The notes under the pieces were generated by a model that did no database searches, was not told the origin of the DNA, and saw only the letters and a program-made list of their open reading frames with translations. A stretch of DNA of 39,749 nt from Nitrospirota bacterium (GTDB lineage Bacteria > Nitrospirota > Thermodesulfovibrionia > SZUA-242), in NCBI GenBank assembly GCA_003235715.1, contig QJVM01000089.1:1-39749 (forward strand), given 5' to 3'. This document shows positions 18,161 through 33,799 of this stretch, piece after piece; the stretch's first letter is position 1, and the number at the start of each line of letters is the position of its first letter. A program made the translations under genes and the position numbers.

Positions 18161-18775
18161 CTACCTGTTCATTTCCTCGAAGACCTTCCCCACGAGGGAC
18201 GGAGAAGGCTTGAGGGTCTTGTCGCCCGGATGCTTCCATTGGGCCGGACAGGCCTCTGCAGAATTCTTTCCGAGATAGATGTTGGCCTCGAGCTTTCGAA
18301 GCAGTTCATCGACGTTACGGCCGAGATTGAAGTAGTTGATCTCGGAATTCATCAGTTCTCCTGCCGGGTTGATGATAAAGGTGCCTCGCAAAGCCAGACC
18401 CGACTCCTTGTCATACACCCCGAAGGTTCGCGAAAGATTTCCCGTGGGGTCGGCTCCCATAAGATATTTCACATCCTGAAGCATCTTTTCACTGCCCTGC
18501 CACGCGAGGTGCACAAACTCGGTGTCCGTGCTCACGGTGACAAGTTCGGCCCCCAGTTTCCGCAATTGGCCCTGCCGCTCTGCCAGAGCAGCAAACTCCG
18601 TAGCTCAGACAAAAGTGAAATCCGCGGGATAGAAGAAGAGCACCGACCATTTCTTCTTTCGAATCTGTTCCTTCAGGCTGAACTCGCCGAAGTTCATCTT
18701 GGCCGGGTTGAATGTCTTGATCGTGAAATCCGGAACCCTTGCGCCCATCTGGAGACTGCAACATTCGTCACCCAT
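18161..18775 (-). CDS. Selenocysteine-containing 2-Cys-type peroxiredoxin (AhpC/Prx1 subfamily)
   Basis: Two minus-strand frames (18868-18605 and 18565-18161) join in one reading frame across a single TGA at 18607-18605. Read as selenocysteine, the chain has 204 residues. Sec57 sits exactly where the peroxidatic Cys belongs, FFYPADFTFV-U-ATEF; the family has Cys at that site, and the T and the later Arg (LALRGTF) complete the usual active site. The resolving Cys is retained in EACPAQW near residue 170. The start is the ATG at 18775, after GGAGGA with 3-nt spacing; the longer frame upstream is not conserved-looking. It begins MGDECCSLQ and reduces peroxides with a thiol partner. It is divergent from pirin and SDR genes. 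A SECIS-like hairpin follows the UGA. A plain nonsense mutation is the alternative. Confidence 0.9.
18572..18594 (-). promoter_or_regulatory. Bacterial SECIS-like hairpin for UGA decoding
   Basis: Starting 12 nt after the UGA, GCTGCTCT (18592-18585) pairs with AGAGCGGC (18581-18574) around the loop GGC (18584-18582). A further T-A pair and a T-G wobble extend it to 18594-18572. The apical loop starts with G and lies 20 nt after the UGA, inside the spacing and loop rules described for bacterial SECIS elements that bind SelB. The element also encodes peroxiredoxin residues, as usual for such sites. Confidence 0.75.
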
Positions 18776-18889
18776 AAGTCCTCCCTGGTTTACAAGAATA
18801 GGAGAGGAATCCCCCTCTACTGAAAACGTTAGCACAGAAACCGGAGCAACGAGCCGGGGGGGGGCCACAAGGCAATCTCCGCCTTCGTT

Positions 18890-18918
18890 TTGACTTGATC
18901 ATGGGTTGGGGTTATTTT
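18890..18918 (+). promoter_or_regulatory. Candidate sigma-70 promoter for the pirin-SDR unit
   Basis: TTGACT (18890-18895), 17 bp, then TATTTT (18913-18918). Transcripts from here would carry a leader of about 210 nt before the pirin start at 19134, unless another start lies nearer. Confidence 0.4.
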
Positions 18919-19133
18919 GGAAAGAGAGGTCGCAGGAAAGACCACCATGGCTGATAACGAGAAACCGGCCGAACGGCGAGGGCAGGTCCCGGACAACATC
19001 CGCGAATTATCTGGAAAGGAGATTTTTGGAGGCGCCGGGTTTCTGTGCCGGGCAAAGATTCGGAGGTCGAAGACGCGGAGGACGGGTCAGGATGGAGGTT
19101 ATGACTTTCTTCCGTTATGCAGGGAGGTTGAAG

Positions 19134-19988
19134 ATGAGCGAGTACCGGACCGTAGAAGATATTTCCGTAAGTCAGCCTACGTTGGAAGGGGCCGGGGTAA
19201 AGCTCCGGCGGGCTTTTGGGAACCAGGCCGCACCCGTTTTTGACCCTTTTCTCCTTCTGGATGATTTCGGCTCTGACCGCCCGGAGGACTACATCCTGGG
19301 ATTCCCGTGGCATCCGCACAGGGGGATCGAAACCGTAACCTATATGCTGACCGGCGAGGTGGAGCACGGAGACAGCATTGGCAATTCGGGAGTCATCAAC
19401 TCGGGGGATGTGCAGTGGATGACTGCCGGAAGCGGCATCATTCACCAGGAAATGCCGAGACGCTGGAATGGCCGGATGCGAGGGTTTCAGCTCTGGGTGA
19501 ACCTGCCGGCCCGTAACAAGATGATGGCCCCACGGTACCGGGGCATCCTGAGCAGTGACATCCCGGAGGCGCACCTTGCCGGGGGGCTCGGAGTGAAGGT
19601 GATAGCCGGGTGCCTGAATGGTATTGAAGGTCCGGTCCGGGATCTCGTGGTCGAGACCGAATATCTCGACGTGGCCGTTCCGGCTGGGGGCGTGTTTGAG
19701 AGAGAACTCCCCACGGGCAACAGGGCCTTTGCGTATGTCTTCGACGGCGAGGGGCGATTTGAGAGCCGGCACGTCCAGGATTACCATCTGGTGACTCTGG
19801 GCCCGGGTCGAAAGGTCCGGGCCGAAGCCGGCGCGGAAGGGCTTCGCTTCCTGCTGGTATCCGGCCTCCCTCTTGGGGAACCGGTGGCCTGGGGCGGTCC
19901 GATCGTCATGAACACGCAGGAAGAACTGGAACGGGCCTTCCGGGAATACCGGGAGGGAACGTTTATCAAGCATGGAAAGCATCCGTGA
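19134..19988 (+). CDS. Pirin family protein (cupin; quercetinase-like)
   Basis: This 284-aa protein has a double cupin fold. The N-terminal cupin keeps the metal ligands: FPWHPHRGIETVTYML, then VEHGDSIGNSG, then SGIIHQE. The C-terminal domain has VFDGEGRFESRHVQDYHLV and FLLVSGLPLGEPVAWGGPIV. The start is the ATG at 19134, preceded by GGGAGGTTGAAG. Open frame back to 18906 is not conserved-looking. Pirins bind iron and some cleave quercetin; others regulate metabolism. It overlaps the SDR gene by 17 bases and is divergent from the Sec-peroxiredoxin. Confidence 0.93.
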   Translation: MSEYRTVEDISVSQPTLEGAGVKLRRAFGNQAAPVFDPFLLLDDFGSDRPEDYILGFPWHPHRGIETVTYMLTGEVEHGDSIGNSGVINSGDVQWMTAGSGIIHQEMPRRWNGRMRGFQLWVNLPARNKMMAPRYRGILSSDIPEAHLAGGLGVKVIAGCLNGIEGPVRDLVVETEYLDVAVPAGGVFERELPTGNRAFAYVFDGEGRFESRHVQDYHLVTLGPGRKVRAEAGAEGLRFLLVSGLPLGEPVAWGGPIVMNTQEELERAFREYREGTFIKHGKHP

Positions 19989-20751
19989 GGACAAGAACCT
20001 TCAGGTGGCCATTGTCACCGGCGGCGCCCAGGGCATCGGTCGCGGGATTACGGCTCACCTGCTCGAAACGGGCTATGCCGTCACCGTGGCGGATGTGGAC
20101 ACGCAAGCCATGGAAGAATGCCGCGACCTTTTTTCATCGGGGCACCTCCTTGTCCTGAAGACGGATGTGGGCACTGAGCCCTCAGCGAGGGCCTGCGTGT
20201 CTGAAACGATCCGGACCTTTGGTCATCTGGACGCCCTGGTGAACAATGCAGGAATTGCAGGTCCACATACATGTTCCCTGGAGGACCTCAGCCTTGCGGA
20301 CTGGGAAAAGGTGATCCGGACCAACCTGACCGGCGTCTTTCTCATGACGCGCCACGCTGCTCCCCATCTTCGAAGCGCCCGAGGGGCCATTGTGAATATG
20401 GCCTCGACCCGCGCCCTCCAGTCCGAGGCCCATACCGAGGCCTACAGCGCTTCGAAAGGAGGCGTGGTCGCCCTCACGCATTCCATGGCGGTCAGCCTCG
20501 GGCCCCAGGTCCGGGTCAATTGCGTCAGTCCTGGCTGGATCGACACGTCGCAGTGGAAAAGAAAGGGTCTCAGCGGGTTGGTCACGCTCCGGGATGTCGA
20601 TCATCAGCAACATCCGGCGGGTCGGGTCGGAAAACCCGAAGACATCGCAGAACTGGTCCGCTACCTTCTCTCGCCAGCCGCCTCCTTTATTACCGGCCAG
20701 AACTTCATCGTGGATGGCGGCATGACCCGAAAGATGATCTACGTGGAATAG
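19972..20751 (+). CDS. SDR-family oxidoreductase
   Basis: This 259-aa classical short-chain dehydrogenase has the NAD(P) motif VTGGAQGIGRG near the N-terminus, LVNNAGIAGPH (structural NNAG), MASTRALQSEAHTEAYSASKGG with the catalytic Ser and Tyr-x-x-x-Lys, and a C-terminal FIVDGGMTRKMIYVE. The substrate is not readable. It is translated in an overlap with pirin, so the pair probably forms one redox or aromatic-degradation step. The start could also lie a few codons inside (LQVAIVTGG). Confidence 0.95.
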   Translation: MESIREDKNLQVAIVTGGAQGIGRGITAHLLETGYAVTVADVDTQAMEECRDLFSSGHLLVLKTDVGTEPSARACVSETIRTFGHLDALVNNAGIAGPHTCSLEDLSLADWEKVIRTNLTGVFLMTRHAAPHLRSARGAIVNMASTRALQSEAHTEAYSASKGGVVALTHSMAVSLGPQVRVNCVSPGWIDTSQWKRKGLSGLVTLRDVDHQQHPAGRVGKPEDIAELVRYLLSPAASFITGQNFIVDGGMTRKMIYVE

Positions 20752-32770: not shown

Positions 32771-32808
32771 GTCTCACCAGCATCACTTTGAAGAAAGGGG
32801 AGACATCG

Positions 32809-33363
32809 ATGCCGACGATCAACGGACTTCAAACAGAAAACCTGGTCAACGTCGTAAACCACGTCAAGCAAAACTGGCAACAGGCCCGAACCACCTGGAA
32901 AGCGCACACCACATGGAAGGGCGGATTCAAGGTGGAGACCTGCTCGCGTGACTTTACGCTTCTTGCAGACGAGCCCGAGATGCTCTGCGGCACAAACACC
33001 GCGGCCAATCCCGTGGAAATGGTACTCCAGGCGTACGGCGCGTGCCTGAGCATCGGCTACGCCATGAACGCCGCAGTGCGCGGGATCAACATCGAGGACC
33101 TGTCCATCGAACTCGAAGGAGAGATTGACCTGCCCGGCTTCCTAGGCCTGGAGCCGCCCGAGGAACTGCACATGGACAAGCTTCCCGGGTTCAAGAACGT
33201 GAATGCAAAAGTCAGGCTGAAAGCCGATGCCGATGCGAAAACGCTCGACGCGCTCCATAAGCACGTGGTGAGCACCTCCCCGGTCGGACTTACGCTGTCG
33301 CGCCCTGTTGCCGTGGACGTTCAGCTGGCAGACGTGCCCCAACACGCTGCCGCAGGCGTATAA
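32809..33363 (+). CDS. OsmC-family protein
   Basis: This 184-aa OsmC-like protein begins MPTINGLQTENLV after AAAGGGGAG. The first redox-type Cys lies in LQAYGACLSIGYAMNAA. The second expected Cys is a Ser, in HVVSTSPVGLTLSRPVAV. OsmC and Ohr enzymes reduce hydroperoxides through two Cys, so either this is a one-Cys subtype or it acts in another way, such as sulfur handling. It is followed 13 bases later by a DsrE-type gene, and both follow a sigma-54 promoter. Confidence 0.93.
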   Translation: MPTINGLQTENLVNVVNHVKQNWQQARTTWKAHTTWKGGFKVETCSRDFTLLADEPEMLCGTNTAANPVEMVLQAYGACLSIGYAMNAAVRGINIEDLSIELEGEIDLPGFLGLEPPEELHMDKLPGFKNVNAKVRLKADADAKTLDALHKHVVSTSPVGLTLSRPVAVDVQLADVPQHAAAGV

Positions 33364-33376
33364 GGGGCAGAACCGC

Positions 33377-33799
33377 ATGACTGAGCTGGCCACACTGGAT
33401 CGGGAACAGTCGAGTGAGGCTATGAGACCCGACCAGGACAACCTCTTTGTCGTGGTGTGTGCATCCGGCTTTGACAGCATTCCGAGGATGCGTTCCGCCC
33501 TCATGTTTGCCGGCCTCGCAGCGGCCGCAGACATGAGGACCATCCTCTATTGCATCCAGGATGCGGTGGACGTCATGGTGAAAGGAAATATCGAAAGGTA
33601 CGAGCCCAAGGGAACCGGTCCGTCCATCGCAGGCCGGTTGCAGGAAGCGCTGGAACAGGGTGTGGAGATACAATGCTGCACCCAGACCATGGCCAACAAG
33701 GGGATCCGTAGGGAGGACCTTGTTCAGGGGGTGACCCCGGCCGGGGCCATGAGTCTTATTTCGATCACGGTCAAGGCCAAGGGTTCGTTGTCTTTCTAG
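33377..33799 (+). CDS. DsrE-family protein
   Basis: This 140-aa protein has the DsrE/DsrF-like fold: VVVCASGFDSIPRMRSALMFAGLAAAADM near the start, LYCIQDAVDVMVKGNIERY, and a Cys pair in EIQCCTQTMANKGI that matches the usual active-site Cys place. Family members carry or relay sulfur. The ATG at 33377 follows AAGGGG; the longer open frame upstream overlaps osmC and is not used. It is probably cotranscribed with osmC. Confidence 0.9.
   Translation: MTELATLDREQSSEAMRPDQDNLFVVVCASGFDSIPRMRSALMFAGLAAAADMRTILYCIQDAVDVMVKGNIERYEPKGTGPSIAGRLQEALEQGVEIQCCTQTMANKGIRREDLVQGVTPAGAMSLISITVKAKGSLSF

What the first reader, a model, noticed from the sequence alone, without database searches (positions are those of the whole stretch)
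18161..18775. Peroxiredoxin with selenocysteine at the peroxidatic position
A single in-frame TGA (18607-18605) falls exactly at the peroxidatic Cys codon of a complete AhpC/Prx1-type protein (FFYPADFTFV-U-ATEF). The frame is intact on both sides, the resolving Cys (EACPAQW) is retained, and a strong ribosome site starts the joined ORF. Standard gene calling would give two fragments or a truncated gene. Sec peroxiredoxins are known in a few bacteria, so the class is not new, but this case implies a Sec-decoding genome and a faster peroxidase.
Basis: partly seen in the sequence, partly recalled or inferred. Interest (0 to 1): 0.85.

Follow-up and report, generated by a model that had tools for sequence, protein, structure and literature searches.

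The report
Selenocysteine peroxiredoxin of Nitrospirota bacteria
A bacterial gene that looks broken by a stop codon is really an intact peroxide-destroying enzyme whose active-site atom is selenium, and the same coding trick, with a matching RNA hairpin, is kept in dozens of related species; the kind of enzyme is already known, this branch of it appears to be undescribed.

Summary
On the minus strand at 18775-18161 lies a complete 204-residue AhpC/Prx1-type peroxiredoxin with one in-frame TGA (18607-18605) exactly at the peroxidatic cysteine. The genome encodes the full bacterial Sec machinery: selA and selB close together, a selD that is itself a selenoprotein, and a tRNA-Sec with anticodon TCA. 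Of 58 close orthologues in 198 sampled genomes of the phylum, 37 have TGA at this codon and 21 have TGC/TGT. All 38 Sec sequences aligned (one from a second collection) carry a hairpin 12 nt after the TGA with compensatory base changes; the Cys versions lack it. This is a bacterial SECIS element, and selenocysteine insertion is by far the best reading. Sec peroxiredoxins are a known class (PrxU; PxxxTxxU motif), so this is a new member of a known kind. Additions: the same genome encodes an AhpF-like flavoprotein reductase with Sec in its N-terminal redox pair (UPYC), a plausible partner, and a second Sec peroxiredoxin; the phylum also holds a distant Sec-AhpC subfamily that has lost the resolving cysteine. 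The reductase partnership is inference; the proposed gain in speed was not tested.

The parts
18161..18775 (-). Sec-containing AhpC/Prx1-type peroxiredoxin gene, 204 residues, stop TAG
   Evidence: AlphaFold2 model pLDDT 92, best PDB match AhpC 1n8j
18605..18607 (-). In-frame TGA at the peroxidatic position (U57), read as selenocysteine
   Evidence: TGA at the same codon in 37 of 58 orthologous genes plus L003
18574..18592 (-). SECIS hairpin: stem GCTGCTC/GAGCGGC, loop TGGCA, starting 12 nt after the TGA
   Evidence: 97% of cells paired, 4 of 7 pairs with double compensatory changes, absent in Cys orthologues
18248..18250 (-). Codon of the resolving cysteine C176 (EACPAQW)
   Evidence: kept in 35 of 37 Sec orthologues that cover it (Val in L054 and L058)
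18758..18763 (-). N-terminal Cys-Cys pair (C5, C6), a frequent but unexplained feature of the subfamily
18776..18786 (-). Likely ribosome-binding site (AGGGAGGACTT) before the ATG
   Evidence: by eye

Best explanation
The gene encodes a typical 2-Cys-type (Prx1/AhpC) peroxiredoxin in which the peroxidatic cysteine is selenocysteine. SelB with Sec-tRNA(Sec) is recruited by the hairpin 12 nt downstream of UGA 57 and inserts Sec. The selenol of U57, in the PxxxTxxU pocket with Arg130, reduces H2O2 or alkyl hydroperoxide. The resulting selenenic acid is resolved by C176 of the partner subunit as a selenenylsulfide, which a thioredoxin-like donor then reduces. A good candidate donor is the AhpF-like flavoprotein of the same genome, whose N-terminal redox pair is U-P-Y-C. 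Shown by sequence: reading frame, Sec machinery, conserved UGA, SECIS hairpin with compensatory changes, catalytic residues. Inferred: Sec insertion in vivo, peroxidase activity, resolution step, reductase partner.
For: Frame intact with a single TGA at C_P. SelA 538 bits and SelB 356 bits in one cluster on contig 95. SelD 353 bits with its own Sec codon. tRNA-Sec 70 bits, anticodon TCA by ARAGORN. TGA at the same codon in 37 of 58 orthologues, TGC/TGT in 21, no other stops. SECIS stem: 30 of 38 Sec genes have 7 of 7 pairs and 8 have 6 of 7; of 21 Cys genes one has 6, the others 2-5. Covariation score 0.266 against 0.125 shuffled and 0.015-0.130 slid. Synonymous-codon shuffles: mean z -2.3 in Sec genes, -0.2 in Cys genes. 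The Sec form tracks SelB: 36 of 37 Sec genomes have SelB against 11 of 21 Cys genomes; the exception is 65% complete. P50, T54 and R130 invariant or nearly so in 44 aligned rows. Fold of AhpC at 1.5 A rmsd.
Against: No protein or RNA data. The window hairpin taken alone is only mildly more stable than shuffles (z about -1.5); the case rests on comparison. Rfam SECIS_1 did not match, but it also rang in none of the controls, so that is uninformative. The Fisher test treats related genomes as independent. The AhpF-like gene lies on another contig, so gene order gives no support for the partnership.
Confidence: 0.97

Rival explanations
1. A nonsense mutation or sequencing error: the codon is really TGC/TGT or the gene is a pseudogene making a 56-residue fragment.
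For: Standard gene calling gives two fragments.
Against: TGA at the identical codon in 37 separate assemblies of the phylum and in L003; no other stop in the cores of 71 genes; frame and protein conserved downstream.
Confidence: 0.01
2. UGA is read through as another amino acid (near-cognate Trp or Cys tRNA), without selenium.
For: Some basal UGA readthrough is general knowledge; some homologues have Cys here.
Against: Full Sec machinery in the genome, SECIS-like hairpin conserved only in TGA forms, TGA form tied to SelB-bearing genomes, SelD of the same genome also has TGA at its known Sec site.
Confidence: 0.015
3. UGA is mainly a regulated switch: under selenium shortage a 56-residue fragment is made, under selenium sufficiency the full enzyme; regulation rather than catalysis is the selected function of Sec here.
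For: Any SECIS-dependent UGA gives selenium-dependent output (general knowledge); Cys forms do exist in Sec-decoding relatives.
Against: TGA falls exactly on the catalytic residue and nowhere else in all Sec orthologues, which points to catalysis.
Confidence: 0.03

Closest known systems
PrxU, Sec peroxiredoxin of Eubacterium acidaminophilum (Sohling et al. 2001, cited in PMC9312934 and PMC13188914; NCBIfam NF040737)
   Same: AhpC-TSA family protein with Sec at the peroxidatic site, PxxxTxxU motif
   Different: The window protein scores 175 bits against a curated cut-off of 270, so it is a different subfamily, in a different phylum
Prx selenoprotein family of comparative genomics surveys (PMC1794560, PMC9312934, PMC13188914)
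   Same: T-x-x-U active site in PF00578 proteins, with Cys homologues
   Different: One table files the family under COG1225 (Bcp); Nitrospirota Sec-AhpC proteins are not mentioned in the passages I read
Sec-AhpC of Blastococcus saxobsidens (PMC5330540)
   Same: AhpC with Sec and a bacterial SECIS after the codon
   Different: There Sec is coded by TAG with a CUA tRNA-Sec; here by TGA with anticodon TCA
AhpC of Salmonella / E. coli (1n8j, 4ma9; TIGR03137)
   Same: Fold, about 40% identity, resolving Cys
   Different: Cys instead of Sec; 190 bits against a cut-off of 272

Membership tests
Bacterial selenoprotein (UGA-Sec) | In-frame UGA aligned with a catalytic Cys of homologues | tested here: met
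Bacterial selenoprotein (UGA-Sec) | selA, selB, selD and tRNA-Sec in the genome | tested here: met
Bacterial selenoprotein (UGA-Sec) | SECIS hairpin just downstream of the UGA | tested here: met
   covariation; absent in Cys forms
Bacterial selenoprotein (UGA-Sec) | Selenium in the purified protein | not testable with these tools
   needs 75Se labelling or mass spectrometry
Prx1/AhpC subfamily, typical 2-Cys | PxxxTxxC/U motif and catalytic Arg | tested here: met
   P50, T54, U57 and R130 invariant in the 44-row alignment
Prx1/AhpC subfamily, typical 2-Cys | C-terminal resolving Cys | tested here: met
   C176 in EACPAQW
Prx1/AhpC subfamily, typical 2-Cys | AhpC fold | tested here: met
   model pLDDT 92; 1n8j rmsd 1.5, TMt 0.93
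Prx1/AhpC subfamily, typical 2-Cys | Intersubunit bond between peroxidatic and resolving residues; peroxidase activity | not testable with these tools
   needs purified protein
PrxU equivalog NF040737 | Score over the curated cut-off of 270 | tested here: not met
   175 bits
AhpC equivalog TIGR03137 | Score over the curated cut-off of 272 | tested here: not met
   190 bits

The most novel reading that the evidence does not exclude
In these bacteria selenium sits on both sides of the alkyl hydroperoxide reductase couple: an AhpF-like flavoprotein with a Sec-x-x-Cys redox pair in its N-terminal domain (UPYC) feeds electrons to an AhpC-type peroxidase with Sec at the peroxidatic site, giving a selenol-to-selenenylsulfide relay. 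The window genome and at least three others (G152, G024, G005) encode both; G170 has a stand-alone Sec AhpF N-terminal homologue together with a Sec peroxiredoxin.
Probability: 0.3. Interest if true: 0.6.

Novelty: new member of a known kind. Interest (0 to 1): 0.4.

Why it matters
Gene callers break this gene in two, so a peroxidase of many Nitrospirota genomes is likely to be missing from annotations or filed as fragments. The subfamily has Sec and Cys forms in close relatives (also inside families f1 and f7), some in genomes that keep SelB, which makes it a natural set for measuring what selenium buys in a peroxiredoxin. The Sec reductase in the same genome raises a testable question about selenium on both sides of one redox couple.

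Tried and rejected
Rfam search of the region and SECIS_1 over the genome gave nothing, but SECIS_1 matched no control either, so it was not counted. Stops reported inside some distant hits (TAA, TAG, and TGA in G189 and G149) turned out to lie at the gene end, with Cys at C_P. Single-sequence folding energy alone is not decisive. Promoter and terminator scans gave nothing useful. The papers library gave no study of selenoproteins in Nitrospirota.

Full report
Observation. Reading 18775-18161 on the minus strand with TGA as a residue gives a 204-residue protein that starts at an ATG with a good ribosome site and ends in TAG, with one TGA at codon 57 (18607-18605). Table 11 splits it. Pfam finds AhpC-TSA over residues 11-141 and 1-cysPrx_C at the C terminus. 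The best solved relatives are bacterial AhpC proteins, in which the peroxidatic cysteine aligns with residue 57. An AlphaFold2 model built on window and locus sequences has mean pLDDT 92 and matches AhpC 1n8j with rmsd 1.5.

Machinery. The window genome (3.24 Mb, 271 contigs, 96% complete) has SelA and a full-length SelB close together on contig 95, SelD on contig 118 with its own Sec codon (TCG-U-AAKIGP) and a tRNA-Sec on contig 48, 70 bits over a cut-off of 47, anticodon TCA by ARAGORN.

Relatives. Among 198 genomes of the phylum, 58 have a close orthologue (54% identity or more). 37, the window included, have TGA at the codon and 21 have TGC or TGT; a further TGA copy comes from a record titled Nitrospirae bacterium MnB_6. 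No other stop interrupts the 71 gene cores checked. SelB over the curated cut-off is found in 36 of 37 Sec genomes (the exception is 65% complete) and in 11 of 21 Cys genomes (Fisher p 6e-5, relatedness not corrected). On the protein tree of 82 rows the Sec state needs only 4 changes against 25 shuffled, with Cys forms nested inside Sec clades in families f1 and f7; this suggests Sec-to-Cys changes there, in genomes that keep SelB.

SECIS. In the Sec genes the 48 nt after TGA hold a stem of the type GCTGCTC/GAGCAGT around the loop TGGCA, starting 12 nt after the TGA. The 7-bp stem is paired in 97% of cells; four pairs show double compensatory changes (for example U-A to C-G in 8 sequences, and C-G to A-U in 4 sequences); the loop is TGGCA in 36 of 38. 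All five measures exceed nearly all shuffles, and sliding the partners by 1-3 columns destroys the pairing. Cys orthologues that code similar protein lack the hairpin, and synonymous-codon shuffles show excess stability only in Sec genes (mean z -2.3 against -0.2). Since the sequences are related, the number of independent changes is smaller than the cell counts.

Mechanism. The catalytic residues P50, T54 and R130 are invariant. The resolving Cys C176 is kept in 35 of 37 Sec orthologues that cover it; two have Val. From established peroxiredoxin chemistry, the most likely cycle is selenol to selenenic acid, then a U57-C176' selenenylsulfide, then reduction by a dithiol or selenol-thiol donor. 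This genome has an AhpF-like flavoprotein (408 bits, below the equivalog cut-off of 503) whose N-terminal redox pair reads TLT-U-PYC-P, with the TGA at the first cysteine. The same substitution is found in AhpF-like proteins of G152, G024 and G005 and in a stand-alone N-terminal homologue in G170; all five genomes also carry the Sec peroxiredoxin. Sec homologues of the AhpF N-terminal domain were described in 2006 (PMC1794560). That the two proteins work together is inference.

Known or new. Sec peroxiredoxins with PxxxTxxU are an established class (PrxU; PMC9312934, PMC13188914), and a Sec-AhpC with a TAG codon has been reported (PMC5330540). The window protein falls below the cut-offs of the PrxU and AhpC models, so model-based annotation would probably not name it. 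I found no description of a Nitrospirota branch in the library searched. It is a new member of a known kind; the pairing with a Sec reductase is the part that could be more than that.

Noticed in passing
L130 / G000:C250:10093-11766 (+): AhpF-like flavoprotein disulfide reductase with in-frame TGA at the first Cys of its N-terminal CxxC (UPYC); the same in G152, G024, G005; closest relative in G023 has CPYC.
   Followed up: partly
L093-L104 (genomes of families f3, f6, f11, f18): A second, distant Sec-AhpC subfamily (42-44% identity): Sec at C_P, the resolving Cys replaced by Thr or Met (ATPSGW), and one invariant Cys 10 residues before Sec; possibly a 1-Sec or atypical Sec-Cys enzyme.
   Followed up: partly
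L108:1432-1911 / G000:C2:10873-11214 (+): A second Sec peroxiredoxin in the window genome, with a signal-like N terminus (YADFTPVUTGEL).
   Followed up: partly
window 18758-18763 (-): N-terminal Cys-Cys (or CxC, CCC) motif in most Sec orthologues and many Cys ones; low-confidence tail in the model; role unknown (metal site or extra redox centre?).
   Followed up: partly
window 18161-18775 (-): On the tree the window's peroxiredoxin does not join those of its own family (G192 Sec, G023 Cys) but sits near G152 of another family, on a long branch: horizontal transfer or old paralogy.
   Followed up: partly
G000:C80:3-290 (-): A further PF00578 match with one TGA at a contig end in the window genome; may be another selenoprotein.
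   Followed up: no
window 18906-20751 (+): Divergent pirin and short-chain dehydrogenase genes start just upstream of the Sec peroxiredoxin.
   Followed up: no
window 32788-33799 (+): OsmC-like and DsrE-like genes lie head to tail, both possibly redox or sulfur related.
   Followed up: no
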